A stretch of DNA of 64,000 bases from Bacteroidales bacterium (GTDB lineage: Bacteria > Bacteroidota > Bacteroidia > Bacteroidales > UBA932). Made by a program: the position numbers and the translations under genes. Shown here piece after piece: positions 6,413 to 56,347 of the stretch. The notes beneath the pieces were generated by a model. The model did not search any database. It was not told the DNA's origin and saw nothing but the letters and a program-made list of their open reading frames with translations. Within the stretch, counting starts at the first letter, position 1. The number at the start of each line of letters is the position of its first letter. Location of the stretch: assembly GCA_017620335.1 (NCBI GenBank), contig JAFZQO010000006.1, positions 62,001 to 126,000 of the forward strand. The letters are read 5' to 3'.

Positions 6413-8851
6413 CTAGACGTTGGCGACGCTCATGATGTCGGCGAACACGCCGGCCGCGGTGACGCTCGCGCCGGCGCCGTAGCCCTGGATGAGCATCGGG
6501 TGCTTGTTGTACCTTTCTGTTGTGAGGAGGATGATGTTGTTGGAACCCTCGAGCTCATAGAGCGACGAACGCTGGCCGAATTCGCATAGGGAAACGGTAT
6601 ATTTGCCGTCCTCCATGCGGGCCACGACGCGCCAGTGCTTTTTCTGGGCCGCTAGCTCCCGGCGGCGCTCCTCGAAGTCCGCGTCGAGCTCCGGCAGGCG
6701 CTTCCAGAACTCCTCAAGGCTGCACTGGAAGAACTCGGAAGGGATGAGGTTCTCTGCTACGACATCCTCCTGGTTGACCTTGTAGCCGGCCTCGCGGGCG
6801 AGGATGACCAGCTTGCGGACCACGTCCTTGCCGGAAAGGTCTATGCGCGGGTCGGGCTCGGCGAAGCCCTGCTCCTTAGCCATCCTCACGGTCTCGCTGA
6901 ACGGGACGGTCTCGGAGAGGGTGTTGAAGATGAAGTTGAGGGTGCCGCTGAGCACGGCCTCGATCTTGAGGATCTTGTCGCCGCTGTTGCGAAGGGCGTT
7001 GATGGTGTTGATGATGGGAAGTCCGGCTCCGACGTTGGTCTCGAAGAGGAATTTCACGCCCCTCTTGAGGGCCAGCGCCTTGAGCTCCGCGTAATTGGCG
7101 TAGTCGGAGGAAGCCGCCACCTTGTTGGCCGCGACCACGGAGATGCCGTGCTCGAAGAAATCATGGTACAGGTCGGCCACCTCGGCGCTTGCTGTGCAGT
7201 CCACGAACACTGAGTTGAAGATGTTCATGCCTATGACCTCGTTCTTCAAACCCTTGATATCGAGAGGCTTGCCGGCTTCGAGGATCTCTTTCCAGTTAGA
7301 GAGGTCAATGCCTTCGCGGTCGAATATGCCCTTGGTGCTGCGGGCTATGCCCACGACGTTGATCTTGAGATTGTTCTCCTTCATCAACTTCTCCCTCTGG
7401 GATGCGATCTGCCCGAGGAGGTTTCCGCCGACGGTGCCGATGCCGCACACGAAGACATTGAGCTCCTGGTATTCTGAGAGGAAGAAACTGTCATGGATGA
7501 CGTTGAGGGACTTGCGCAGGAACCTGCGGTCCACGACGAAGGAGATGTTGTGCTCCTCCGTACCCTGGGCGCAGGCGATGATGCTGATGCCGTTGCGGCC
7601 GAGGACGCTGAAGAGCTTTCCGGCGATGCCGGCGTTGTTCTTCATGTTCTCGCCCACGATGGCGACGGTGGCGAGGTCCTTCATCAGCTGGACCGGGGCC
7701 ATGGAGCCTTCGGCGATCTCATGCGCGAACTCGCGTCCTAGCAGCTCGCAGGCCTTGTCGGCCTGGGCGGCGCTGACACCGAGGGAGATATGGGTCTCGG
7801 ACGATGACTGGCTGACGAGGAAGACGCTGATGAAATTGTCGGCGAGCACGCGGAAGATGCGGCTGTTGACGCCGATGATGCCGGCCATCGAGGTTCCCGC
7901 AACGGTGATGAGGCAGGAGTCGTCGATGGACGAGATGCCGGTGACGGTGCGGCTGCCCTTGCGGCTGTGCTGGCGGATGACTGTGCCCTTGGCCTCGGGA
8001 TTGAAGGTATTCTTGACAAGGACCGGGATGTCCTTGGAGCAAACGGGATAGATTGCCGGGGGATAGATGACCTTCGCGCCGAAGTTGCAGAGTTCCATGG
8101 CATCGGAGAAGCTCAGTTCGTCGATGACGTAGGAAGTCTTGATGACGCGCGGGTCGGCTGTCATGAATCCGTCCACGTCGGTCCAGATTTCCAAACACTG
8201 GGCGTTGAGCGCGGCTGCGATGATGCTGGCGGTATAGTCCGAACCGCCGCGGCCCAGATTGGTGATCTCGCCGGTGCGGGAGTCGGTGGAGATGAATCCG
8301 GGGACGACGGCCACTTCGTTGCGGCCCTCGATGCCGGAGAATTTCTTGCGTACTAGCTCTTCAGTGATCTCGGAATCGAGGACGTTCTTGCCCTCGATCA
8401 CCGTGGACTTGATGAATTCGAGAGAATCGTACAGGAAGGAGCCGGGGATGAGCGCGCTGACTATCATGGAGGATATGCGCTCGCCGAAGCTCACAATCTG
8501 GCAGGCGGTCTTGTCGGGGAGCACCCTGAGGGTGTACACGCCTTCGTACAGGGCGCGCAGGTTCTCATGCTTCGCCTCGATGGCCTCGAGAAGGCGGTCG
8601 CGGGTTTCTGAGGGCTCGAAAACGGCCTCCACGAGGTCCAGGTGGCGTCTGCGTATCTTCTCATAAGAGGCGCGGAAATTCTTGTCCCCGCGCTCCGCCT
8701 GTGCGGAGGTGCTGAGGAGCATGTCCGTGACGCCGCCGAGGGCGGACACGACTACTATGACGCTTTCCTGGCGTGAAGAGACTATCTGTTTGACATTGAG
8801 GATGGACTCGGCCGAGCCCACGGATGTACCACCGAATTTCAGAACGTTCAT
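6413..8851 (-). CDS. thrA: Bifunctional aspartokinase / homoserine dehydrogenase
   Basis: An 812-residue fusion enzyme catalysing the first and third steps from aspartate to homoserine. The aspartokinase domain begins with KFGGTSVG (residues 5-12), ACT-type regulatory domains occupy about 310-455, and the homoserine dehydrogenase begins near residue 462 with the NAD(P) motif VCGIGTVGG. Length matches E. coli ThrA (820). ACT domains suggest feedback by an end product, probably threonine by analogy. It is the first gene of thrABC with a clear promoter in the 60 bases after metH, but read-through from metH is possible because the genes are in the same direction. Confidence 0.96.
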   Translation of the reverse strand: MNVLKFGGTSVGSAESILNVKQIVSSRQESVIVVVSALGGVTDMLLSTSAQAERGDKNFRASYEKIRRRHLDLVEAVFEPSETRDRLLEAIEAKHENLRALYEGVYTLRVLPDKTACQIVSFGERISSMIVSALIPGSFLYDSLEFIKSTVIEGKNVLDSEITEELVRKKFSGIEGRNEVAVVPGFISTDSRTGEITNLGRGGSDYTASIIAAALNAQCLEIWTDVDGFMTADPRVIKTSYVIDELSFSDAMELCNFGAKVIYPPAIYPVCSKDIPVLVKNTFNPEAKGTVIRQHSRKGSRTVTGISSIDDSCLITVAGTSMAGIIGVNSRIFRVLADNFISVFLVSQSSSETHISLGVSAAQADKACELLGREFAHEIAEGSMAPVQLMKDLATVAIVGENMKNNAGIAGKLFSVLGRNGISIIACAQGTEEHNISFVVDRRFLRKSLNVIHDSFFLSEYQELNVFVCGIGTVGGNLLGQIASQREKLMKENNLKINVVGIARSTKGIFDREGIDLSNWKEILEAGKPLDIKGLKNEVIGMNIFNSVFVDCTASAEVADLYHDFFEHGISVVAANKVAASSDYANYAELKALALKRGVKFLFETNVGAGLPIINTINALRNSGDKILKIEAVLSGTLNFIFNTLSETVPFSETVRMAKEQGFAEPDPRIDLSGKDVVRKLVILAREAGYKVNQEDVVAENLIPSEFFQCSLEEFWKRLPELDADFEERRRELAAQKKHWRVVARMEDGKYTVSLCEFGQRSSLYELEGSNNIILLTTERYNKHPMLIQGYGAGASVTAAGVFADIMSVANV

Positions 8852-12313: not shown

Positions 12314-13239
12314 CAGAAGAATCTCTTCAGTATCTCCACCGTATTGTCAGGCCGCCCCATCGTGTAGAAATGGATGGCCGGCACGCCGTTGCGCAGGAGG
12401 TCGCGGCACTGTTCCGAGCACCATTCGAGCCCTATGCTGTAGCACGCGGCCCTGTCGTCAGCATGGGCCCTCATTTCACTCACAAGGCCCTGGGGAATGT
12501 CCAGGGAGAAAAGGTCCGGGATGGACTCCAGCTGTTTCGCGCTGGAGAGGGGCTTGAGGCCGGGTATGATGGGAACCTTGATGCCGGCGAAGCGGCAGCG
12601 GTCCCTGAACTCATAGAAATGGTTGTTGTCGAAGAACATCTGGGTGATGATGAAATCCGCGCCGGCCTCCACCTTGCGCTTGAGATTGGCTATGTCGGTC
12701 TCCATGTTCGGAGCCTCGAAATGCTTCTCGGGATAGCCTCCGACGCCGATGCAGAACTCCGTGCCGTTCTCCCTGCCGAAGGCGCGGACGGCGGAGACGA
12801 GTTCGTTTGCATAGCGGTATCCTCCCGGCTCGGGCGTGAAACGCTTCTCGCCGAGCAAGCTGTCCCCCCTGAGCGCCATGATGTTCTCTATGCCGAGGAA
12901 CTTGAAATCGTTCAGCGTGTCGCTGATCCTCTCGGCGGTGGCGCCGCCGCAGATGAGGTGGGGGACGACCTCGACGTCGAACTCCGCCTGGATGGACGCG
13001 CAGACGGCCGTCTCGCTGAGGCGGCGGCGCACTGTGTGCCTGGTGAAACTTCCGTCAGCCTCCTGGCGGAATTCTACCTCGTCGCGGTGACATGTAACGT
13101 TGATGTACGGAGGCTTGAACTCCATGAACGGCCGTATGGAGTCAAGGAGTTCGGCCTTTGTGACACCCTTGAGGGGAGGGACGATCTCGATTGAGGCGAA
13201 GGGTTCCTTCCTCGATGCGATTATATCCTTGATTTTCAT
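12313..13239 (-). CDS. metF: Methylenetetrahydrofolate reductase
   Basis: A 308-residue FAD-dependent reductase making 5-methyltetrahydrofolate, the methyl donor used by the adjacent metH. It has the single-domain bacterial length. Recognisable family segments are [10 protein letters not shown] near the N-terminus, NIMALRGD (near 115) and [11 protein letters not shown] (near 190), which line the barrel active site. Its ATG overlaps the proA stop (ATGA) and its stop overlaps the metH start, so metF and metH are translationally linked, which matches their consecutive reactions. Confidence 0.95.
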
Positions 13240-45289: not shown

Positions 45290-45315
45290 ATCTTTCCGAA
45301 AATTCCTTCGGAATA

Positions 45316-45346
45316 TTTTGGTTTTTAAAAATTTTTTCTAACTTTG
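45316..45346 (+). promoter_or_regulatory. glnN operon promoter
   Basis: TTTTG (45316-45320), 18 bases, then TAACTTTG (45339-45346), a strong Bacteroidota promoter. Transcription should begin near 45351, leaving a leader of about 190 bases before glnN. Confidence 0.8.
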
Positions 45347-45370
45347 TAAGCAGTTGGTTAGAGAACAGAT

Positions 45371-45457
45371 ATGGCACACGTCGATCAGAAAAAGCAGAAG
45401 CGCTCTCAGGCTCAGGCCTGGCAGCGCGTTTGTCGTCGTATCCACCCGGTTGGATAG
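45371..45457 (+). CDS. Gln-rich leader peptide upstream of glutamine synthetase (putative)
   Basis: A 28-codon frame starting MAHVDQKKQKRSQAQAWQ and ending in PVG. Five of the first 18 codons are Gln, all CAG. The part carrying the last three Gln codons forms a hairpin: GCGCT/AGCGC (45400-45404 with 45423-45427) enclosing CAGGC/GCCTG (45407-45411 with 45416-45420). A terminator follows 38 bases after the stop, directly before glnN. By analogy with amino-acid attenuators, ribosome stalling at Gln codons in glutamine shortage would allow read-through. I know of no described leader of this kind for glutamine synthetase; the call is an inference from layout. Confidence 0.65.
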   Translation: MAHVDQKKQKRSQAQAWQRVCRRIHPVG

Positions 45458-45495
45458 CGAGTCTGAAACGACTGTACGCCTGTAATCCCATATTG

Positions 45496-45532
45496 TCCGG
45501 TTCTCCCACGTGGCGAATCGGATTTTTATTTG
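45496..45532 (+). terminator. Putative attenuator terminator of glnN
   Basis: TCCGGTTCTCC (45496-45506) pairs with GGCGAATCGGA (45512-45522) with one mismatch and one G-U around the loop CACGT, followed by TTTTTATTTG (45523-45532). The glnN ATG is eight bases later, so this terminator can only control glnN and the genes after it. CCGGTT at 45446-45451 in the end of the leader ORF can also pair with AATCGG of the 3' arm, a possible antiterminator. Confidence 0.78.
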
Positions 45533-45540
45533 AAAAGGAT

Positions 45541-47721
45541 ATGGAAAGCAACAGACTGGACCTGGTAAGGTATTCCTTCGAGAAGAAGGCACTGCCCGTG
45601 GATGTCCCTCAGGAACGTACTTCCGAGTATTACGGCGAACTCGTGTTCGACCGCGCGAAGATGCGCAGGTATCTCAAGCCGGACGTGCTCAGGGCACTGC
45701 TGGACTGCATCGACAACAGCAAGCCCCTCGACCGCACCACCGCCGACGGAGTTGCCAGGGGCATGAAGGAATGGGCCCTGGACCATCACGTGACCCATGT
45801 CACGCACTGGTTCCAGCCCCTGACCGAAGGCACCGCCGAGAAGCACGACGCCCTGATCGAGTATGACGGCGAAGGGGGAGTGATAGAACAGTTCGACGGC
45901 AAGTCGCTCGCACAGCAGGAACCCGACGCCTCCTCGTTCCCCAGCGGGGGCATCCGCGCCACCTTCGAGGCGCGCGGATACACCGCGTGGGATCCGACCT
46001 CTCCGGTGTTCATCCAGGGCGACACCCTCTGTATCCCAACCGTTTTCATTTCCTATACCGGCGAGGCCCTGGACTACAAGACCCCGCTGAAAAAGGCCAT
46101 CAAGGCCGTTTCAGACGCCGCCCTGCCCATCTGCCGTCTCTTCGACCCGGCCGTGAACAAGGTTTTCTGCTATCTCGGATGGGAGCAGGAGTATTTCCTC
46201 GTCGACGAGGCCCTGTACGCAGCCAGGCCCGACCTGATGATCACCGGCCGCACGCTCATGGGGCACATGTCATCCAAGAACCAGCAGCTTGACGACCATT
46301 ACTTCGGAGCCATCCCTTCGCGCGTGGCCGCTTTCATGCGTGAGCTCGAGATAGCCGGGCACAGGCTCGGCATCCCCCTGAAGACCAGGCATAACGAGGT
46401 TGCGCCGAACCAGTTCGAGCTCGCCCCCATCTACGGTGAATGCAATCTCTCCAACGACCAGAACCAGATGGTGATGAACCTCATGAACACCATCGCCCGC
46501 AAGCACGGATTCGTGGTCCTGCTTCACGAGAAACCTTTCGAGGGCATCAACGGCTCCGGCAAGCACAACAACTGGTCGCTCGGCACCGATACCGGCGTGC
46601 CGCTCATGGCGCCTGGCAAGGACCCGATGGGCAACCTCCAGTTCATCACGTTCTTCGTCAACGTGCTCGCTGCCGTGCAGAGGCACAACGCCCTGCTCAA
46701 GGCCAGCATAGCAAGCGCCACCAACGCACACCGCCTCGGCGCCAACGAGGCTCCGCCCGCAATTGTCTCGGCCTTCCTCGGCCGCACGATGACGCAGGTG
46801 CTCCGCAAGCTCCTGGAGCTGCCGTCCGACACCCCCGTCGAGATCGCGGGCAAGAAGGGCCGCGGAGTCGGCCTCGTCGAGATACCCGAGATCTTCGTGG
46901 ACAATACGGACCGCAACCGCACCTCGCCCTTCGCCTTCACCGGCAACCGTTTCGAGTTCCGCGCCGTCGGCTCCTCTGCCAATTGCGGCGAGGCCATGGC
47001 TACGCTCAACGCCGCCGTCGCGCAGCAGCTTACGGCCTTCAAGAAGGACCTGGACGCCGAGCTTGCAAAGGGCAAGGAACTCCGCGTCGCGCTCATGGAT
47101 ACGCTCAAGCCTGTCATAAGCTCTATCCTCGACGTCGTCTGCTTCGACGGCAACGGCTATTCCGAGGAGTGGAAAGCCGAGGCCGCAAGGCGCGGTCTGG
47201 ACACCGAGACCAGGGTCCCCGAGATGATCAAGGCATACCTCGCCCCCGGCGCCTTGGAGATGTTCGCCGAGACCGGAGTCTTCTCCGAGAAGGAGATCAT
47301 CGCCCGCTGCGACGTCAAGTGGGAGACTTACTGCAAGAAGGTGCAGATCGAGTCGCGGGTGATGGCCAGGATGGCCGCGAACCATATCGTGCCAACAGCC
47401 ATAGAGTACAAGACCCGGCTGCTGAAGGAGATGTCCCTGAACAAGGATGTCCTCGGTTCGCTCGAGGGCTGCGACACCGAGCTCGGCATGGTCAGGGAGA
47501 TTTCCGCCCTCATCGACGAAATCCGCGAGCGCGTGGATGCCATGCACTCGGCCCGGAAGGCCGCCAACGCCATCGAAGATACCTGCGGGAGGGCTGAGGC
47601 CTATTATTATATCGCCGAGAGCCTGTACGCTCTCCGCAAGCCCATCGACAGGCTCGAGGAGATCGTCGACAACAGCCTCTGGCCCCTTCCCAAGTACCGC
47701 GAACTATTGTTTATCAGTTAG
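45541..47721 (+). CDS. glnN: Glutamine synthetase type III
   Basis: A 726-residue GSIII, the large dodecameric form common in Bacteroidota, converting glutamate and ammonia to glutamine. Recognisable are WEQEYFLVDE (near 218, metal-binding glutamates), RHNEVAPNQFELAP (near 285), NGSGKHNNWSLG (near 338, ATP and glutamate site) and the RTSPFAFTGNRFEFRAVG segment near 460 (split as RTSPFAFTGN and RFEFRAVG). The frame is open back to 45286, but that part holds the promoter, leader ORF and terminator, and the ATG at 45541 gives the normal GSIII N-terminus. The whole operon behind it serves glutamate and glutamine use. Confidence 0.95.
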   Translation: MESNRLDLVRYSFEKKALPVDVPQERTSEYYGELVFDRAKMRRYLKPDVLRALLDCIDNSKPLDRTTADGVARGMKEWALDHHVTHVTHWFQPLTEGTAEKHDALIEYDGEGGVIEQFDGKSLAQQEPDASSFPSGGIRATFEARGYTAWDPTSPVFIQGDTLCIPTVFISYTGEALDYKTPLKKAIKAVSDAALPICRLFDPAVNKVFCYLGWEQEYFLVDEALYAARPDLMITGRTLMGHMSSKNQQLDDHYFGAIPSRVAAFMRELEIAGHRLGIPLKTRHNEVAPNQFELAPIYGECNLSNDQNQMVMNLMNTIARKHGFVVLLHEKPFEGINGSGKHNNWSLGTDTGVPLMAPGKDPMGNLQFITFFVNVLAAVQRHNALLKASIASATNAHRLGANEAPPAIVSAFLGRTMTQVLRKLLELPSDTPVEIAGKKGRGVGLVEIPEIFVDNTDRNRTSPFAFTGNRFEFRAVGSSANCGEAMATLNAAVAQQLTAFKKDLDAELAKGKELRVALMDTLKPVISSILDVVCFDGNGYSEEWKAEAARRGLDTETRVPEMIKAYLAPGALEMFAETGVFSEKEIIARCDVKWETYCKKVQIESRVMARMAANHIVPTAIEYKTRLLKEMSLNKDVLGSLEGCDTELGMVREISALIDEIRERVDAMHSARKAANAIEDTCGRAEAYYYIAESLYALRKPIDRLEEIVDNSLWPLPKYRELLFIS

Positions 47722-47748: not shown

Positions 47749-48648
47749 ATGGAAAAGATCAAAGTTGCGATTGTCGGTTACGGCAACATCGGCAGGTATT
47801 CGCTGGAGGCGGTCGAGGCCGCCCCGGACATGGAATGCGTCGGAGTGGTCCGCAGGAGCGGGTCCGCCGAGGGCTTCCCGGAACTTGCCGCCTATAACGT
47901 GGTTTCCGATATAAGGGAACTGGGAAAGGTGGACGTCGCCATCCTTGCGACCCCTTCGAGGAAGGTCAAGGAGAATGCGGAGAAATACCTGGCCATGGGC
48001 ATCAATACCGTGGACAGCTTCGACATCCACACTGACATCTGCGCGCTCCGCGCCGACCTCGATCCCCTGGCCAAGGCCAACGGGGCCGTCAGCATCATTT
48101 CGGCCGGCTGGGATCCGGGTAGCGACTCCATTGTCCGCGCCCTGATGCAAGGCCTCGCCCCCAAGGGTGTGACCTATACCAATTTCGGCCCCGGACGCTC
48201 CATGGGCCATTCCGTGGCCGCCAAGTCCATCCCCGGTGTGAAAGACGCCCTGAGCGTAACCATCCCGATAGGCACCGGCCTGCACCGCCGCATGGTGTAC
48301 GTCGAGCTTGAGGAGGGCGCCGATTTCGCGGCAGTGGACGCCGCCATCCACGCCGACCCGTACTTCTCCCACGACGAGACGCATGTGACGCAGGTGGACT
48401 GCGTCGACGACCTCAATGACGTCGGCCACGGCGTGAACCTCGTCCGCAAGGGCGTCTCCGGCAAGACCCACAACCAGCATTTCGAGTTCGACATGAGCAT
48501 CAACAACCCCGCCCTCACGGGCCAGGTCCTCGTCATGGTAGCCCGCGCGGCCGTACGCCAGCGCCCTGGTTGCTACACCATGATCGAGATTCCCGTCATC
48601 GACATGCTCGCCGGCGACCGCGAAACGCTCATCCGCAGCCTCGTATAG
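47749..48648 (+). CDS. ddh: meso-Diaminopimelate dehydrogenase
   Basis: A 299-residue NADPH enzyme that makes meso-diaminopimelate from tetrahydrodipicolinate and ammonia in one step, for lysine and peptidoglycan. The N-terminal Rossmann motif [13 protein letters not shown] and the substrate segments [16 protein letters not shown] (near 118), [12 protein letters not shown] (near 146) and NNPALTG (near 263) are typical. As an ammonia-fixing enzyme it fits its place between glutamine synthetase and glutamate dehydrogenase; 27 bases separate it from glnN. Confidence 0.93.
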
Positions 48649-48686: not shown

Positions 48687-50045
48687 ATGTCAAAGTTTAC
48701 TGACAAGTATGTCGAGTCTTTCATGACCGACCTCATCGCCAAGAACCCCGGTGAGACCGAGTTCCACCAGGCAGTCCGTGAAGTCCTTACCAGCGTCGCT
48801 CCCGTCCTCGAGGCCTATCCCCATCTCCTTGACAACAAGATCATGGAGCGCATCGTGGAGCCCGAGCGCGTCATCATGTTCCGCGTTCCCTGGACCGACG
48901 ACAAGGGCGAGATCCACATCAACCGCGGTTTCCGCGTGCAGATGAACAGCGCCATCGGCCCTTACAAGGGCGGTATCCGCTTCCATGCCAGCGTCAACCT
49001 CAGCATCATGAAGTTCCTCGCCTTCGAGCAGACCTTCAAGAACAGCCTTACCACTCTCCCCATGGGCGGCGGCAAGGGCGGCTCCGACTTCAACCCGCGC
49101 GGCAAGTCCGACGCCGAGGTCATGCGTTTCTGCCAGAGCTTCATGACCGAGCTTCAGCGCCACATCGGCCAGGACACCGACGTTCCCGCCGGTGACATCG
49201 GCGTGGGCGGCCGTGAGATCGGCTTCCTCTTCGGCCAGTACAAGCGTCTGCGCGACGAGTTCACCGGCACCCTGACCGGCAAGGGCCTCGCATGGGGCGG
49301 CAGCCTCCTGCGTCCTGAGGCCACCGGCTACGGCGCCTGCTATTTCGCACAGGACATGCTCGCCACCCGCGGCGAGACCTTCGAGGGCAAGACCGTCGTC
49401 GTCTCCGGCGCCGGCAACGTCGCCCAGCATGCCGCCGAGAAGGCCATGCGCCTCGGCGCCAAGGTCGTCACCCTCTCCGACTCCGACGGCTTCGTCTATG
49501 ACCCGGACGGCTTCAACGAGGAGAAGATCGCCTATGTGAAGCATCTCAAGAACGCCCTCCGCGGACGTATCAAGGAGTATGTGACCAAATATCCCAACGC
49601 TACCTACACCGGCAACGGTGAGAAGCCTTGGGGCGTCAAGTGCGACATCGCCATGCCTTGCGCCACCCAGAACGAGCTTAACGGCGAGCAGGCCAAGCTC
49701 CTCCTTGCCAACGGCTGCATGTGCGTTTGCGAAGGCGCCAACATGCCTTGCACCCCCGAGGCCATCGAGGCCTTCCAGGCCGCGAAGATCCTCTATTCCC
49801 CGGGCAAGGCGTCCAACGCCGGCGGCGTGGCTACTTCCGGTCTTGAGATGACCCAGAACTCCATCCGCCAGAAGTGGACCTCCGAGGAGGTCGACGCCCA
49901 GCTCCACAGGATCATGTCCGACATCCACGCCGCGTGCCTCAAGTACGGCACTGAGGAGGACGGATATATCAACTACGTGAAGGGCGCCAACATCGCCGGC
50001 TTCATCAAGGTCGCCAACGCAATGGTCGACCAGGGACTTGTTTAA
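48687..50045 (+). CDS. gdhA: NADP-type glutamate dehydrogenase
   Basis: A 452-residue hexameric enzyme interconverting 2-oxoglutarate plus ammonia and glutamate. GPYKGGIRFH near residue 90 and MGGGKGGSDFNP near 125 hold the substrate and catalytic lysines; the dinucleotide fold has SGAGNVAQHAAEKA near 240. Length and motifs match the NADP-preferring biosynthetic class, though cofactor use is not proven. GTTAGTAG at 48655-48662 lies upstream, a string also seen before thrA and ilvD. Strong GC-rich codon use, as expected for high expression. Confidence 0.95.
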   Translation: MSKFTDKYVESFMTDLIAKNPGETEFHQAVREVLTSVAPVLEAYPHLLDNKIMERIVEPERVIMFRVPWTDDKGEIHINRGFRVQMNSAIGPYKGGIRFHASVNLSIMKFLAFEQTFKNSLTTLPMGGGKGGSDFNPRGKSDAEVMRFCQSFMTELQRHIGQDTDVPAGDIGVGGREIGFLFGQYKRLRDEFTGTLTGKGLAWGGSLLRPEATGYGACYFAQDMLATRGETFEGKTVVVSGAGNVAQHAAEKAMRLGAKVVTLSDSDGFVYDPDGFNEEKIAYVKHLKNALRGRIKEYVTKYPNATYTGNGEKPWGVKCDIAMPCATQNELNGEQAKLLLANGCMCVCEGANMPCTPEAIEAFQAAKILYSPGKASNAGGVATSGLEMTQNSIRQKWTSEEVDAQLHRIMSDIHAACLKYGTEEDGYINYVKGANIAGFIKVANAMVDQGLV

Positions 50046-50054
50046 AAGATTCAA

Positions 50055-52991
50055 ATGGAAAGCAGCACGACATTGATGTCCAGGCGTATCCGCAGTATCC
50101 TGCTGATATGCAACAGTTACGACAGCTTCTCCCTTGAGGAGGATGGACGTATAGAAACGCAGATCGCGCAGGAGTACGCGGAGCTGGGTCTGAGCAACCC
50201 GCCGCAGATCCGGAGGGTGGAGACCACCGCCGAAGCGCTCACCCTCTTCGAGGGCGGCGAGCGCTTCGACCTGGTCATCACCATGTATTACGTGGGGGAG
50301 ATCAATGTCTTCGAGTTTTCGGAGAAAGCGAAGGGGTACGATCCGGACATGCCGATCGTACTCCTTTCGTCGTTCTCCAGGGAGGTTTACCGCAAGATCG
50401 AGTCCTTCGGGCGTTCCGGCATCGACTACGTCTTCTGCTGGAACAATTCCACGGACCTCATCATCGCCATCATCAAGCTCCTGGAGGACCGGATCAACGC
50501 CGAGGACGACATCCTGGGCGGGGGAGTGCAGGGCATACTCCTGGTGGAGGATTCCATCCGCTATTATTCCACCTACCTGCCCGCGCTCTACCGCATGGTG
50601 CTGCAGCAGAACAAGGAGTCCATCAAGGACACCCTGAACGAGCAGCAGCAGATCGCGCGGAAGCGGGCCAGGCCCAAGATCCTGATGGCCACGAACTACG
50701 AAGACGCGGTCGCGCTGTACGAGAAATACAAGACCAACCTGCTCGGTGTCATAACCGACGTGGGCTTCGTCCTGCACAAGGACGACAAATCCTCCGACGA
50801 GAAGATCGACGCCGGAGTGGACCTCTGCCGAATGATACGCGCAGACAATCCCCGCATGCCCATACTCATGCAGTCCTCCCAGGAGAGCATGAGGGTCGTG
50901 GCGAAGGGGCTGGGCGTTGGATTCATCCGCAAGTCCTCCAAGATGCTCCTTCAGGAGCTCGAGGAATACATAGAGCGCGAGTTCGGCTTCGGTGACTTCG
51001 TCGCCGTCGATCCCGCCACCGGTGTGGAGATAGGCCGTGCGAGGGACCTCTACGAGTTTGAGAACCTCTTGCGCACGATACCCCCGACCGTTTTCCGGGC
51101 CCTCGCGGACAAGAACTATCTGTCCAAGTGGCTCTATTCCAGGGGTATATTCAAGCTTGGAAGGGCTCTCAACCCCGTCCGCTCCGAGGACTATGCCGAC
51201 GTGGAGACGCACAGGGCGTATGACCTCAAGGTCATCCACGACTACCGCATTTCCCAGGCTCTCGGCGTCGTTGCGGCCTTCAATCCCGCGACCTTCAACG
51301 ACACCATCTGGTTCTCGCGCCTCGGTACGGGATCCATCGGCGGCAAGGCCCGCGGCCTGGCTTTCCTGAACAACATCCTCGAAAAATACAACCTCTACGA
51401 CCAGTGGGAGGACGTGCATGTCATGGTGCCGCGCACCCTGGTCATCACGACCGACTGGTTCGACCGCTTCATCCATGAGAACGGCCTGAAATACGTCATC
51501 GACTCGGACATGAGCGACAGCGACCTGCTGTCCGAATTCGTATCCTCCAACCTCCCGAAGGAGCTTATGGATTCACTCAAGGCCTTCATCAAGGTTGTCC
51601 GCAAGCCTCTAGCCGTACGTTCCTCGTCGCGTCTGGAAGATTCCTACCATCAGCCGTTCGCGGGTGTATATTCGACTTACATGCTTCCTTGGGCCGACCA
51701 TACCGGCCAGCAGCTCAGGCTCCTCTCCAAGGCCATAAAGAGCGTCTATGCCAGCGTTTTCTTCTCCGCCGCCAAGAGCTATATCCTTTCCTCCGGCAAC
51801 GTCATCTCCGAGGAGAAGATGGCCATCGTCATCCAGGAGGTCTGCGGCAGCGAGGACCACGGTTATTTCTTCCCGACCGTGTCGGGAGTGGCCCGCTCGA
51901 TCAACTTCTATCCCGTCGGTCACGAGACCGCCGAGGACGGCATCGTAAAGGTCGCCTACGGCCTCGGAAAGGCCGTCGTGGACGGCGAGCAGGTACTCCG
52001 TTTCTCCCCGAAATATCCCAAGCACGCCCTCCAGGTTTCGACTCCGGAACTGGTCATGACAGACACGCAGAAGTCTATGCTTGCGCTGAGCATGAGCCCG
52101 GAGCGCTTCAAGACTTCGGTGGACGAAGCCGTGAACCTCGAGCGGCTCAACATCGTGGACTGCTACAAGTTCAGGTCCTTCTCAAAGGTCGTCTCCACCT
52201 GGGACTACAGCAACATGCGAATGGTCGATTCCGCGTTCCCTGAGGGACCGAAGTACATCACCTTCGCCCAGATGCTCAAATACAACACGGTGCCCATAGC
52301 CGACATCGTGGACCGTCTCCTGCACATCGCCAAGGACGAAATGAAGTGCAACGTGGAGATCGAGTTCGCTGCCGACTTCGAGCCGGACGGCAGGGCCCTG
52401 TTCAACGTGCTTCAGGTCAGGCCCATTTCTGTCGACACCCGTTTCGCGGATGTCAATTGGGATGAGATCGATACGGATGACGCGTTCCTGACTTCAGGCT
52501 GCGCCCTCGGCACGGGCTGGGTGGAAGGCGTGCAGGACGTCGTTTATTTGAAGAAGGACGCCTGGGACGTGCTCAAGACGCATGACATAGCGAGCGAAGT
52601 GTCCGCGGTCAATACTCGGATGCTTGAGGAAGGGAAGGGATACATCCTCATCGGTTTCGGCCGCTGGGGCACCAGCCAGCCCACTTTGGGCGTTCCGGTG
52701 CGCTGGAGCGACATCTCGGAGGCGAAGGCCATCGTGGAGTGCTCGCTGCCGAACTTCCAGATCGATCCCAGCCAGGGTACGCACTTCTTCCAGAACCTGA
52801 CATCCTTCAATGTCGGATACATCAACGTCAATCCTTACGCCCATCATGAGGACAGGCTTGACTTCTCCGTACTCGACGCCATGCCGGCGGTGAGTGAGAC
52901 GGAGTACCTGCGCCACGTGCGCTTCCAGGACGAACTGCAGGTCTGCATTGACGGCAAGACCAACAGGGCAATGGTAAAATGCAAAGGATAA
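50055..52991 (+). CDS. Receiver-domain protein with PEP-synthase/PPDK ATP-binding domain
   Basis: A 978-residue protein. Two receiver-like domains come first. The first (about 14-150) lacks the phospho-acceptor Asp ([11 protein letters not shown]). The second (about 168-320) retains VEDS, the acceptor Asp in GVITDVGF and the lysine in GFIRKSSK. The rest contains a PPDK N-terminal ATP-grasp fold (about 430-860): [36 protein letters not shown] (split as [10 protein letters not shown] and YHQPFAGVY) and the QVRPIS ending. The phosphohistidine swivel and PEP/pyruvate barrel of true PEP synthase are absent, so it cannot do the full reaction alone. Role unknown; it lies between gdhA and guaA and overlaps guaA by 13 bases. 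Confidence 0.8.
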
Positions 52992-54499
52992 TCATCCTCG
53001 ATTTCGGGTCCCAGACGACCCAGCTTATTGGCAGGCGCGTACGCGAACTGCATACTTTCTGCGAAATACTCCCTTACGACAAGTATCCCTCCGACGACTC
53101 GGACGTGATCGGCGTGATTCTCAGCGGCTCCCCGCTGAGCGTGTATGCGCCGGACGCGGCCAGGCCCGACTTGTCGGGCTTCCTGGGCCGCCTGCCGGTG
53201 CTCGGCATCTGCTACGGCGCCCAACTTCTCAGCTACAGCCTCGGCGGCCTCGTCGAGCCCGTCGGGACGCGCGAGTACGGCCGTGCTGAGCTGTCCTCCA
53301 TCGACCCTTCCTGCCCGCTTTTCAGCGGCATCAAGGCCCCTTCGCAGGTATGGATGAGCCATGGGGATACCATTACCCGGCTGCCTGAAGGATATAAGGT
53401 TACGGCGTCCACCGAGAGCGTCCGGTTCGCGGCGTTCGAGGCATCCGACGCGCCCGTGTGGGGCGTGCAGTTCCACCCTGAGGTTATGCACACCACCGAG
53501 GGCGCGCGTCTCCTGGAAAACTTCGTCGTGGGCATCTGCGGCAGCCGCCGCGAATGGACTCCCGACTCGTTCGTTGAGAGCTCCGTGCAGGAGCTCCGCA
53601 CCATGCTAGGGAACGACAAGGTCGTCCTCGGCCTGAGCGGCGGCGTGGATTCGTCCGTTGCGGCCGTGCTCCTGAACCGCGCCATAGGCAGCAATCTCAC
53701 CTGCATCTTCGTCAACCACGGCCTTCTGCGCAAGCACGAGTTCGAGGATGTCATGGAGGACTATAAGGGCTTGGGGCTCAACGTCATAGGCGTGGACGCA
53801 TCGGAATCTTTCCTGTCGGAACTGGCAGGGGAGGCGGACCCGGAGCGCAAGCGCAAGATCATAGGCAGGAAGTTCGTCGAGGTCTTCAACGCCGAGGCGG
53901 CGAAGATCGAGGGTGCCCGCTGGCTCGCCCAGGGCACCATCTATCCCGACCGCATCGAGAGTAGTAATATCACCGGCAAGGTCATCAAGAGCCACCACAA
54001 CGTCGGCGGCCTCCCGAAGGAGATGAAGCTGAAACTGTGCGAGCCCTTGAAATGGCTGTTCAAGGATGAGGTCCGTGCTGTCGGCCTCAGCCTCAGGATG
54101 CCGCGCAGGATGGTGTTCAGGCATCCTTTCCCGGGTCCGGGACTCGCGGTACGCATCCTCGGGGACATCACACCTGAGAAGGTGCGCATACTGCAGGACG
54201 TGGACGACATCTTCATGAGAGGCCTGCGTGACAACGGCCTTTACGAAAAGGTCTGGCAGGCCGGGGCCATCCTCCTTCCGGTCCGGACGGTCGGCGTTAT
54301 GGGCGACGAGCGCACCTACGACAGGGCTGTCGTGCTGCGCGCGGTGACCAGCTCGGACGCCATGACCGCCGACTGGGCTGACCTCCCGGTCGGCTTCATG
54401 AGGAATATCAGCAATGAGATTATCAACAAGGTGAAGGGCGTCAACAGAGTATGTTACGACATCTCCTCCAAACCCCCGGCAACCATAGAATGGGAATAG
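52979..54499 (+). CDS. guaA: GMP synthase (glutamine-hydrolysing)
   Basis: A 506-residue enzyme aminating XMP with the amide of glutamine. The amidotransferase domain (1-190) has the nucleophile Cys in [11 protein letters not shown] near residue 80 and VQFHPEV near 165. The ATP-pyrophosphatase domain follows with [12 protein letters not shown] near 218, and the dimerisation domain ends in [11 protein letters not shown], the family's standard C-terminus. It begins inside the end of the previous gene and ends three bases before glmS. Confidence 0.96.
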
Positions 54500-54502
54500 C
54501 TT

Positions 54503-56347
54503 ATGTGCGGAATCGTAGGATATATAGGTGACAGGCAGGCTTGCCCGATCCTGGTGAAGGGCCTCAAGAGGCTCGAATACAGAGGATACGACAGTGCCGG
54601 AGTGGCCCTGGTGGGGGAGGACGGCTCCCTGAACGTTTACAAGTGCAAGGGAAAGATCAGCGCCCTGGAGCATTTCCTTGAGGACAAGGACACCCGCGGC
54701 ACGATAGGCATCGCCCATACGCGCTGGGCCACCCATGGGGAGCCCAACGACACCAATGCACACCCCCATTTCTCTTCCGACGGGAAGATTGCGATGATCC
54801 ACAACGGCATCATCGAGAATTACCGCGTGCTGAAGGAGGCGCTTTCCGCCGAGGGAGTGGTTTTCCGCAGTGAGACCGATTCTGAAGTGCTGGTCAATCT
54901 CATCGAGTATGTGCGCGTAACTGAAGGCTGTTCCCTTGAAGAGGCGGTGCGTCTAGCCCTCAAGAAGGCCGTGGGAGCCTATGCTATCGCCGTCATTGAG
55001 CAGTGCAACCGCGACAGGATCATCGCCGCCCGCCAGAGCAGCCCTATGGCCATTGGCGTGGGTAAAGGGGAGTATTTCATCAGCTCCGACGCTTCTTCCA
55101 TTGTCGAATACACCCATGAAATAGTCTATGTCGAGGACGGCGAGATAGCCGTCATCGAGCGCGGCAAACCCCTGCAGCTCATCACTTTGGAGAACCAGGA
55201 GGCGGATGTCAAGATCACTACTCTGGATATCTCCATCTCCGACCTGGAGAAGGGAGGCTATCCCACATTCATGCTCAAGGAGATCAACGAGCAGCCCCGC
55301 ACCATCGTCGACTGCATCAGGGGACGCGTGAATTCCGAGAGCGGACACGTCATCCTTTCCGGAATCCGGGACAATATCGACCGCTGGTTGGCGGCCCGTC
55401 GTGTCATATTCGTCGCGTGCGGCACTTCGTGGCATGCCTCGCTTATCGGCAAGCAGCTCTTCGAGAACATCTGCCGCATTCCCGCCGAGGTGGAGTACGC
55501 GTCGGAATTCCGCTATCGCAACCCTGTCCTTTATCCTGACGACGTGGTAATCGCCGTGTCGCAGTCCGGCGAGACCGCAGACACGCTGGCGGCCATCACG
55601 CTTGCGCGGAAGGCTGGAGCGTTCGTTTACGGCATCTGCAACGTCATTGGCTCGAGCATAGCGCGTGCGACCGACAGCGGTACTTACGTTCACGTAGGCC
55701 CCGAGATCGGCGTCGCCTCGACCAAGGCCTTCACCGGACAGGTCACGGTCATGGCCATGATGGCGCTGACCATAGCCGAGCGCAAGGGGACTGTCTCCGG
55801 CGATTATTATGAAGAAGTGGCACAGGGCCTGCTCGGCCTTCCTGCGAAACTGAAGGAGGTCCTGGAACTGAGCGGCCAGGTCGCGGACCTCGCCAAGATA
55901 TTCACCTACGCGCACAACTTCATCTATCTCGGGCGCGGTTACAACTATCCTACTGCCCTCGAGGGAGCGCTCAAGCTCAAGGAAATCAGCTATATACATG
56001 CGGAAGGCTATCCGGCCGCAGAGATGAAGCACGGTCCTATCGCGCTCATCGACGCGGAGATGCCGACGGTCGCCATCGTCACTCCTGACGTGACTTATGA
56101 AAAGACTCTGAGCAACATCGAGGAAGTCAAGGCCCGCGGCGGAAAGGTCATCGCCGTCATGGCGAAAGGCGACGAGACCGTCCGCAGGATCGCGGACTAT
56201 GTCATCGAGGTCCCTGCCACGACAGACTGCCTGATGCCGATCATCGTGTCCGTCCCCCTCCAGCTTCTCGCGTATTACATCGCGGTTTACAAGGGTCGCA
56301 ACGTCGACCAGCCCCGCAACCTCGCCAAATCAGTGACAGTCGAGTAG
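54503..56347 (+). CDS. glmS: Glutamine--fructose-6-phosphate aminotransferase (isomerising)
   Basis: A 614-residue enzyme producing glucosamine-6-phosphate for peptidoglycan and LPS. The Ntn-type glutaminase domain starts with MCGIVGYIGDRQA (Cys2 nucleophile). Two SIS domains follow, with ACGTSWHASLIGKQL (near 303) and SQSGETADTLAA (near 354), and the C-terminus is DQPRNLAKSVTVE, the usual end. No glmS ribozyme is evident upstream because guaA ends three bases before. Last gene of the operon. Confidence 0.96.
   Translation: MCGIVGYIGDRQACPILVKGLKRLEYRGYDSAGVALVGEDGSLNVYKCKGKISALEHFLEDKDTRGTIGIAHTRWATHGEPNDTNAHPHFSSDGKIAMIHNGIIENYRVLKEALSAEGVVFRSETDSEVLVNLIEYVRVTEGCSLEEAVRLALKKAVGAYAIAVIEQCNRDRIIAARQSSPMAIGVGKGEYFISSDASSIVEYTHEIVYVEDGEIAVIERGKPLQLITLENQEADVKITTLDISISDLEKGGYPTFMLKEINEQPRTIVDCIRGRVNSESGHVILSGIRDNIDRWLAARRVIFVACGTSWHASLIGKQLFENICRIPAEVEYASEFRYRNPVLYPDDVVIAVSQSGETADTLAAITLARKAGAFVYGICNVIGSSIARATDSGTYVHVGPEIGVASTKAFTGQVTVMAMMALTIAERKGTVSGDYYEEVAQGLLGLPAKLKEVLELSGQVADLAKIFTYAHNFIYLGRGYNYPTALEGALKLKEISYIHAEGYPAAEMKHGPIALIDAEMPTVAIVTPDVTYEKTLSNIEEVKARGGKVIAVMAKGDETVRRIADYVIEVPATTDCLMPIIVSVPLQLLAYYIAVYKGRNVDQPRNLAKSVTVE

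What the first reader, a model, noticed from the sequence alone, without database searches (positions are those of the whole stretch)
45316..45540. Possible glutamine-codon attenuator in front of glutamine synthetase (glnN)
Between a clear promoter and glnN lies a 28-codon ORF with five CAG Gln codons in its first 18, a hairpin covering three of them, and then an 11-bp terminator with a T run ending eight bases before the glnN ATG. The terminator is seen directly. The regulatory model (stalling on Gln codons when glutamine is short permits read-through into glnN and the nitrogen operon behind it) is inference from classical attenuators. I know of no described leader-peptide attenuation of glutamine synthetase in Bacteroidota.
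Basis: partly seen in the sequence, partly recalled or inferred. Interest (0 to 1): 0.82.

Follow-up and report, generated by a model that had tools for sequence, protein, structure and literature searches.

The report
Glutamine leader-peptide attenuator controlling nitrogen genes
In front of the glutamine synthetase gene of an uncultured gut bacterium lies a short glutamine-rich peptide gene followed by an RNA stop signal; relatives carry the same arrangement in front of several nitrogen genes, which suggests that these bacteria sense shortage of glutamine (and probably asparagine) by how fast ribosomes read that little gene.

Summary
In detail: a Bacteroidota-type promoter, a 28-codon ORF with five CAG codons (45371-45457), an 11-bp terminator with U-tract (45495-45531), then type III glutamine synthetase glnN at 45541. 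The attenuator reading is supported by comparison, not by experiment. In the same genus (taken to be Candidatus Cryptobacteroides) 58 of 134 glnN copies examined have a Gln-rich leader ORF with a strong hairpin behind it. Gln is 25% of codons in 44 non-redundant leaders against 2.7% in window genes, in one frame only. The window's three nearest orthologues keep all five Gln positions. In 34 of 44 leaders a hairpin at or near the ORF's end shows a loop complementary to the terminator's 5' arm: a candidate pseudoknot antiterminator that only a stalled ribosome would leave free. Gln/Asn-rich leaders also precede glnK-amtB, asnB, gltB, carAB, a purF-like gene and a porin-like gene, so it looks like a nitrogen regulon sensing Gln and probably Asn charging. 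It was not found before 84 glnN copies from other genera of the order. In the window itself the antiterminator is weak (4 bp; p = 0.12). Ten full-text searches listed no glutamine leader-peptide attenuator.

The parts
45317..45346 (+). Promoter of Bacteroidota type: TTTG (45317-45320) and TAACTTTG (45339-45346)
   Evidence: Direct reading; similar elements can be read before leaders of relatives. Consensus itself is recalled.
45371..45457 (+). Leader ORF, 28 codons plus TAG: MAHVDQKKQKRSQAQAWQRVCRRIHPVG
   Evidence: conserved in L051-L053 with Gln positions unchanged
45386..45424 (+). Five CAG Gln codons: 45386-45388, 45395-45397, 45407-45409, 45413-45415, 45422-45424
   Evidence: Direct reading; same positions in three orthologues
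45394..45433 (+). Hairpin P0 spanning four of the Gln codons (possible pause hairpin)
   Evidence: MFE fold; this block has z -2.54 against codon-permuted controls; below -1.64 in 12 of 44 leaders, mean z -1.14
45436..45460 (+). Hairpin P1 at the ORF's end (core 45439-45456, UAUCCA/UGGAUA); loop CCCGGU, the CCGG (45446-45449) is the proposed antiterminator strand
   Evidence: MFE fold; core and loop identical in L051 and L052; pseudoknot search (p 0.12, 0.07, 0.09)
45495..45523 (+). Intrinsic terminator hairpin; its 5' arm CCGG (45497-45500) is the proposed partner of the P1 loop
   Evidence: a hairpin of -13.7 kcal/mol or stronger lies between leader and glnN in all 58 leaders
45524..45531 (+). 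U-tract of the terminator (TTTTATTT)
   Evidence: Direct reading
45541..47721 (+). glnN, type III glutamine synthetase (GSIII)
   Evidence: Pfam GSIII_N 4.7e-72, Gln-synt_C-ter, Gln-synt_C
47749..48648 (+). diaminopimelate dehydrogenase, second gene behind the attenuator
   Evidence: NCBIfam TIGR01921 1.4e-107
48687..50045 (+). gdhA, NADP-specific glutamate dehydrogenase
   Evidence: NCBIfam NF006929 2.7e-227
50055..52991 (+). PPDK_N-domain protein, function unknown
   Evidence: Pfam PPDK_N 2.8e-40
52979..54499 (+). guaA, glutamine-hydrolysing GMP synthase
   Evidence: NCBIfam NF000848 4.1e-222
54503..56347 (+). glmS, glutamine--fructose-6-phosphate transaminase
   Evidence: NCBIfam TIGR01135 1.7e-235

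Best explanation
This is a ribosome-mediated transcription attenuator that senses charging of tRNA-Gln (and, in the wider family, probably tRNA-Asn). Transcription starts about 20 nt upstream of the leader ORF (inferred from the -7 element). If Gln-tRNA is plentiful, the ribosome runs through the CAG codons to the stop codon, which lies in hairpin P1; it unfolds P1 and covers its loop, the terminator folds, and transcription ends before glnN. If Gln is short, the ribosome stalls on CAG codons. The last of these begins 14-17 nt before P1, so P1 folds in front of the ribosome and its loop pairs with the terminator's 5' arm as it emerges (H-type pseudoknot). The terminator cannot form and glnN with the genes behind it is transcribed. 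Shown here: the anatomy, the in-frame Gln enrichment, conservation and covariation in the family, and the recurrence before nitrogen genes. Inferred: transcription start, stalling, pseudoknot formation, termination and glutamine response.
For: Leader in 58 of 134 genus copies examined (57 of 115 genomes); Gln 285 of 1138 codons in frame, 12 and 31 in the other two frames. Gaps inside the coding part of alignment A1 are 3 or 6 nt only (shared columns, so few events), those in the non-coding linker have many lengths. Pseudoknot better than 95% of shuffles in 34 of 44. P1 has double changes at 5 of 9 pairs and the terminator at 8 of 13; loop/arm pair 64-125 changes A-U to G-C in 6 sequences while the same arm base keeps its terminator partner (C-G in 7): one base covaries with two partners (0 of 500 shuffles reach the covariation score). 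Last Gln codon to P1: 11-24 nt, median 17, at least 13 nt in 31 of 33. Gln/Asn leaders with terminators before glnK-amtB, asnB, gltB, carAB and others.
Against: No expression data. The window's own pseudoknot is weak: 4-bp loop/arm helix, p = 0.12 against shuffles; with a 5-bp minimum none is found, and L051 and L052 give p 0.46 and 0.41. The covariance model built from 36 relatives does not find the window element. L002 (80% GlnN identity) has promoter and hairpin but no Gln codons. 76 of 134 genus copies have no leader by the rule. An unconstrained search for pairing to the terminator arm beat shuffles in only 9 of 58. On P1 plus loop/arm helix one measure, pairs with double changes, is reached by 34 of 500 shuffles, and only 1 of 6 loop/arm pairs has double changes. 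In 17 of 58 leaders fewer than 4 T follow the called hairpin.
Confidence: 0.82

Rival explanations
1. A glutamine riboswitch or protein-binding leader RNA: the RNA fold, not translation, senses the signal, and the ORF is incidental.
For: The leader is structured (z -2.4) and P1 and terminator covary. In cyanobacteria glnA RNAs, reported to bind glutamine, stand before the same kinds of genes (PMC2864571, passage; binding from the reference list seen).
Against: Conservation is codon-like: Gln in one frame only (285 against 12 and 31), gaps in threes, number of Gln codons variable (3-11). No Rfam family matches the leader; in 15 sampled loci only a tRNA and a TPP riboswitch were found, neither at a leader. 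I saw no conserved aptamer-like core outside P1 and the terminator in A1.
Confidence: 0.06
2. Attenuation without amino-acid specificity: the leader reports general translation or coupling, or the small peptide acts itself, and Gln richness is a lineage quirk.
For: Gln/Asn-rich leaders stand before several genes, and the window peptide has as many Arg (4) plus Lys (3) residues as it has Gln (5) and more.
Against: The targets that could be named belong to ammonium or glutamine metabolism, a porin-like gene apart; a general sensor would not choose them. Gln positions are kept while neighbours change.
Confidence: 0.07
3. Classical trp-type switch in which the stalled ribosome masks strand 1 (P0 or P1 5' strand) so that strand 2 is freed, with no pseudoknot.
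For: A hairpin over the Gln codons (P0) recurs (12 of 44 below z -1.64); sequences just after the stop can pair with the terminator arm, e.g. GAGCCG in L051.
Against: In 31 of 33 leaders with a supported pseudoknot the last Gln codon begins at least 13 nt before P1, so a ribosome stalled there would hardly mask P1; loop/arm covariation points to the P1 loop as antiterminator strand.
Confidence: 0.25
4. An ordinary terminator of an upstream transcript plus a chance ORF.
For: A terminator-like hairpin also stands at 45294-45313, and 76 of 134 genus glnN copies have no leader.
Against: The terminator follows its own promoter-like element and ORF, and the arrangement recurs in 57 genomes.
Confidence: 0.03

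Closest known systems
Amino-acid biosynthetic leader-peptide attenuators (trp, his, ilv, leu, thr, phe; recalled)
   Same: Short ORF rich in codons of the pathway's amino acid, alternative hairpins, intrinsic terminator before the operon
   Different: Amino acid is Gln (with Asn); targets are ammonium-assimilation and amidotransferase genes; Gln codons lie upstream of P1 rather than inside strand 1; antiterminator looks like a hairpin-loop pseudoknot
ilvB-II motif of Corynebacterium (PMC10272879, passages read; PMC11109978, passages)
   Same: uORF with regulatory codons; part of the P1 loop pairs with a terminator strand to make the antiterminator
   Different: Ile/Leu/Val codons, genus Corynebacterium, one operon; the pairing is to the right shoulder of the terminator stem there, to the left (5') arm here
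Bacteroid-trp motif RF01692 (PMC2864571, table entry seen)
   Same: Cis-regulatory leader of Bacteroidetes in that table; from memory a Trp leader
   Different: Other target; no Rfam match here
glnA and Downstream-peptide RNAs RF01739/RF01704 (PMC2864571, passage)
   Different: Those are glutamine-binding RNAs (recalled, and reference titles) of cyanobacteria; here the sensor appears to be translation of Gln/Asn codons

Membership tests
Leader-peptide (ribosome-mediated) transcription attenuators | Short translatable ORF between promoter and first gene | tested here: met
   45371-45457; 58 of 134 genus copies. Translation itself not shown.
Leader-peptide (ribosome-mediated) transcription attenuators | ORF enriched, in frame, in codons for the amino acid made or used by the operon | tested here: met
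   Gln 25% against 2.7% in 44 leaders; window copy 5 of 28
Leader-peptide (ribosome-mediated) transcription attenuators | Intrinsic terminator before the first gene | tested here: met
   Window 45495-45531; hairpin in all 58 leaders, at least 4 T in the next 8 nt in 41 of 58
Leader-peptide (ribosome-mediated) transcription attenuators | Mutually exclusive antiterminator, in the family | tested here: met
   34 of 44; one arm base covaries with two partners
Leader-peptide (ribosome-mediated) transcription attenuators | Mutually exclusive antiterminator, in the window's own copy | tested here: inconclusive
   CCGG:CCGG, 4 bp, p = 0.12
Leader-peptide (ribosome-mediated) transcription attenuators | Read-through rises when the amino acid's tRNA is uncharged | not testable with these tools
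   Needs RNA-seq or reporters
Glutamine riboswitch (glnA, Downstream-peptide) | Match to the Rfam covariance model | tested here: not met
   No match in window nor in 15 loci
Bacteroid-trp RF01692 and other Rfam leaders | Match to the Rfam covariance model | tested here: not met
   No such match in window nor at leaders of 15 loci

The most novel reading that the evidence does not exclude
A whole nitrogen regulon (glnN, glnK-amtB, asnB, gltB, carAB, a purF-like amidotransferase, a porin-like gene) is run without a dedicated regulator protein, each operon by its own Gln/Asn leader peptide. The antiterminator is an H-type pseudoknot that forms only in front of a stalled ribosome, so uncharged tRNA-Gln/Asn, not 2-oxoglutarate or NtrC, is the nitrogen signal in these gut Bacteroidota.
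Probability: 0.45. Interest if true: 0.86.

Novelty: new variant of a known kind. Interest (0 to 1): 0.76.

Why it matters
How Bacteroidota control nitrogen assimilation is poorly understood (general knowledge). If right, this would be a glutamine-sensing leader-peptide attenuator, a class for which my searches listed no report, used across a set of nitrogen operons in rumen and gut bacteria. The design is directly testable: codon swaps, loop/arm swaps and Gln limitation each give clear predictions. The pseudoknot geometry would be a distinct way of turning ribosome stalling into read-through.

Tried and rejected
Unconstrained duplex search for pairing to the terminator arm: only 9 of 58 beat shuffles at p < 0.05. 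I judged it too permissive, since any pairing in a long region competes, and replaced it by a constrained hairpin-plus-loop search and by pair counts on an alignment. Those pair counts use a structure written from one member (L062), which favours it over slid versions.

The covariance model R1 was tried on the window and found nothing there. Of 26 further R1 matches looked at, 16 had a Gln/Asn-rich leader, 8 had none and look like bare terminators (L458, L464-L467, L469, L471, L472), and 2 (L449, L451) were not evaluated by that script because the loci are clipped; L449 is the asnB leader already seen as L302, and the gene behind the L451 element begins like P-II. One of the 8 without a leader had E = 2e-9, so weak R1 matches are not members and '114 of 151 genomes' is not a count of attenuators.

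Rows dropped by hand: L064 (59 rows met the rule; without it 58) and its copy L168, whose ORF has Gln codons but no hairpin behind it; also L200 and L232 among the 22 of 80 named loci that met the rule. L119 has a significant pseudoknot whose stem lies upstream of the last Gln codon, against the model; it is left out of the 33 distances. Three of the 134 genus copies had less than 450 nt of upstream DNA (L090, L103, and L129 with 52 nt).

In the order-wide set three rows from other genera met the loose Gln/Asn rule with some hairpin call (L363, L376, L421), all roughly 400 nt or more upstream of glnN; judged chance. The count '0 of 84 copies outside the genus' joins 21 copies under the strict rule and 63 under the loose rule. 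Only glnN was looked at outside the genus.

The 44 non-redundant leaders include near relatives, so the shuffle tests are not independent trials. A1 leaves out 8 of the 44 (L001, L015, L019, L051, L052, L116, L117, L119), the window clade among them; I left them out by choice as too divergent and did not try them.

Considered and dropped: that CAG repeats are an RNA motif rather than codons; frame counts and gaps in threes argue against it.

Full report
OBSERVATION. The finding is in the sequence as described. A promoter of the Bacteroidota type (TTTG at 45317, TAACTTTG at 45339-45346; consensus recalled) is followed by a 28-codon ORF at 45371-45457, MAHVDQKKQKRSQAQAWQRVCRRIHPVG, with CAG at codons 6, 9, 13, 15 and 18; then a terminator hairpin at 45495-45523 with a U-tract to 45531; then the ATG of glnN at 45541. 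GlnN is a type III glutamine synthetase (Pfam GSIII_N). Close behind it follow diaminopimelate dehydrogenase, gdhA, a PPDK_N-domain protein, guaA and glmS. On both strands of the 64-kb window 4 short ORFs meet a Gln/Asn-rich rule and this is the only one with a terminator behind it. No Rfam family covers it.

RELATIVES. Named contigs found with its GlnN include Candidatus Cryptobacteroides merdipullorum, avistercoris and onthequi and many rumen MAGs, so the genus is taken to be Candidatus Cryptobacteroides (inference). GlnN matched in 306 of 400 genomes of the genus; I examined the upstream regions of 134 copies from 115 genomes, mostly the best-scoring ones. 58 of 134 copies (57 of 115 genomes) have an ORF with at least 4 Gln in 14 residues ending 60-180 nt before glnN (one row, L064, dropped by hand). 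Examples: MAYTVYNQQQNQQSQGNQSGVVSACV (L007), MKYNLYSQQQEQQQSQNQQVPGASWCV (L062), MSFVVLNNNNQNNNQNQQVLIASV (L009). In each of the 58 the region between leader and glnN holds a hairpin of -13.7 to -30.7 kcal/mol; 41 of 58 have at least 4 T in the 8 nt behind it, and in some of the other 17 the T run is partly counted inside the hairpin. Of 80 named loci 22 met the rule; I set three of these aside (L168, L200, L232).

THE ORF LOOKS TRANSLATED AND SELECTED FOR GLUTAMINE. In 44 non-redundant leaders Gln makes 285 of 1138 codons (25%), against 2.7% in seven window genes; the other two frames of the same DNA give 12 and 31 Gln codons. Asn is also high (11% against 4.2%). Gln codons are CAG 283, CAA 2, which mirrors the window's genes (113 to 3), so the choice between the two codons carries no extra message. 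Gaps inside the coding part of the alignment are 3 or 6 nt only (shared columns, so few events), those in the non-coding linker have many lengths. In the window's own clade (L051, L052, L053; GlnN 89-92% identical) all five Gln positions are unchanged, while against L051 five other residues and three other codons (plus the stop codon) changed.

STRUCTURE. In many leaders the last codons and the stop form the 5' strand of a hairpin (P1, for example GUGCGUAUA/UAUGCGGCAC) whose loop shows CUCCAGCC or the like, complementary to the terminator's 5' arm GGCUGG. With the loop-arm helix added this is an H-type pseudoknot. A search allowing 1-6 nt for loop 1 and 0-2 nt for loop 2 found a pseudoknot stronger than 95% of shuffled controls in 34 of 44 leaders (25 beat all 60 shuffles); the leaders are related, so these are not independent trials. 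A less constrained duplex search was significant in only 9 of 58. On alignment A1 (36 leaders; window clade not included) P1 has double changes at 5 of 9 pairs, the loop/arm helix at 1 of 6, the terminator at 8 of 13; no shuffle of 500 reaches the covariation score, though 34 of 500 reach the number of doubly changed pairs for P1 plus loop/arm. One terminator-arm base is informative: it pairs with the terminator 3' arm (U-A 23, C-G 7, U-G 5) and with the P1 loop (A-U 22, G-C 6, G-U 4), so one base keeps two alternative partners. In a second form (L098, L101, L136, L139, L140 and others) the ORF runs through P1 and the loop is CCGGUC or CCGGCC against an arm GGCCGG. The window's P1 (core 45439-45456) is of this second form: UAUCCA/UGGAUA with loop CCCGGU, whose CCGG matches CCGG in the terminator arm. 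That helix has only 4 bp and is not significant alone (p = 0.12; 0.07 and 0.09 in L051 and L052), and the covariance model of the relatives does not find the window copy.

MECHANISM. In the 33 leaders with a supported pseudoknot downstream of the Gln codons (34 less L119), the last Gln codon begins 11-24 nt (median 17) before P1, 13 nt or more in 31 of 33; in the window 14 nt before the whole hairpin and 17 before its core. A ribosome waiting at a Gln codon (reach of about 13-14 nt beyond the first base of its A site, recalled) leaves P1 free; a ribosome that reaches the stop codon unfolds P1 and covers its loop. So stalling should permit the pseudoknot and read-through, full translation should permit the terminator. 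This differs from the trp leader, where the stalled ribosome masks the first strand (recalled). The prediction that separates the two: without leader translation, read-through here, termination in the trp design. All steps after the anatomy are inference.

REGULON. In relatives glnN with its leader lies at the head of a cluster with gltB, glnK and asnB on the same strand (G008:C13 and G016:C1). In the window's genome glnK, amtB (Pfam Ammonium_transp), a porin-like gene, asnB, glnN2 and gltB lie in a row on contig C9 behind a leader of their own, MIDIFTISANFKQQSQSESNNNSQNNLVSCPAGRIR, with P1 and a terminator (R1 match E = 9.9e-6). Further Gln/Asn-rich leaders with terminators stand before asnB (L299, L301, L302, L444, L448, L457, L462; another in L238 and L239), glnK (L243, L447, L453, L461, L468, L470; also L237, L239), gltB (L450), carAB (L237; weak in L239), a glutamine amidotransferase that reads like purF (L459), a porin-like gene without a Pfam match (L456, L460) and more glnN copies (L454, L455) (families). 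The gltB and purF-like leaders have only one Gln each and are Asn-rich. In the 17 non-glnN leaders that I tallied by target, Asn is at least as frequent as Gln for every target, so Asn-tRNA is probably sensed as well. In the window's genome the carAB leader is decayed. Pseudoknots of the non-glnN leaders were read by eye only, for those. Of 26 further model matches examined, 8 had no leader, so weak matches are not members.

DISTRIBUTION. No leader was found before 84 glnN copies from other genera of the order (21, 63; three distant chance ORFs in the second set). On a GlnN tree of 145 rows the 35 leader-bearing rows need 13 changes (at least 7 forced by well-supported branches; shuffled mean 31.5), so the leader is gained or lost often. 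L019 (G022) carries it on a glnN of another clade (60% identity). L002, the closest GlnN outside the window clade by identity (80%), has promoter and hairpin but only MCILFLNDIFS.

WHAT IS KNOWN. Ten full-text searches of the open library listed no report of a glutamine leader-peptide attenuator; subscription journals are mostly not held. PMC2965389 (passages) says that to its authors' knowledge leader-peptide systems had not been shown outside Proteobacteria and Actinobacteria (ermC apart) before its Firmicutes case. [quoted passage not shown] The ilvB-II motif (PMC10272879, passages) already has a P1 loop that pairs with a terminator strand. So the kind is known; the amino acid, the regulon, the host group and the pseudoknot geometry make it a new variant.

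VERDICT. Real, conserved, and most likely a glutamine-sensing attenuator; the exact antiterminator in the window copy is the weakest link.

Noticed in passing
L236 (G000:C9) minus strand 12365-12475: Second Gln/Asn-rich leader with terminator in the window's own genome, before glnK-amtB-porin-asnB-glnN2.
   Followed up: yes
L237 minus strand 7021-7146; L239 and L236 upstream of carAB: carAB leader: clear in G036, weak in G105, decayed in the window's genome; suggests rapid loss.
   Followed up: partly
L459: Asn-run leader MFYTFNNNNNNNQNLNNEVLRKSRV with terminator before a purF-like glutamine amidotransferase; could sense Asn rather than Gln.
   Followed up: partly
L456, L460: Gln/Asn leaders before a porin-like gene (L460 protein: no Pfam match) of the kind found beside amtB; may point to a role in nitrogen uptake.
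   Followed up: partly
L463 (G079:C208): Gln/Asn-rich leader with terminator; the gene behind it was not determined.
   Followed up: no
window 50055-52991: 978-aa protein with a PPDK_N domain and a weak response-regulator-like stretch among the genes behind glnN; function unknown.
   Followed up: no
44 non-redundant glnN leaders: Asn codons in leaders are mostly AAT (80 of 127) whereas window genes prefer AAC (152 of 180); may be A+T richness or a slower codon.
   Followed up: no
window 45294-45313: Terminator-like hairpin on both strands between the upstream gene and the glnN promoter.
   Followed up: no
L019 3965-4062: TPP riboswitch (Rfam RF00059) in that locus, away from the leader.
   Followed up: no
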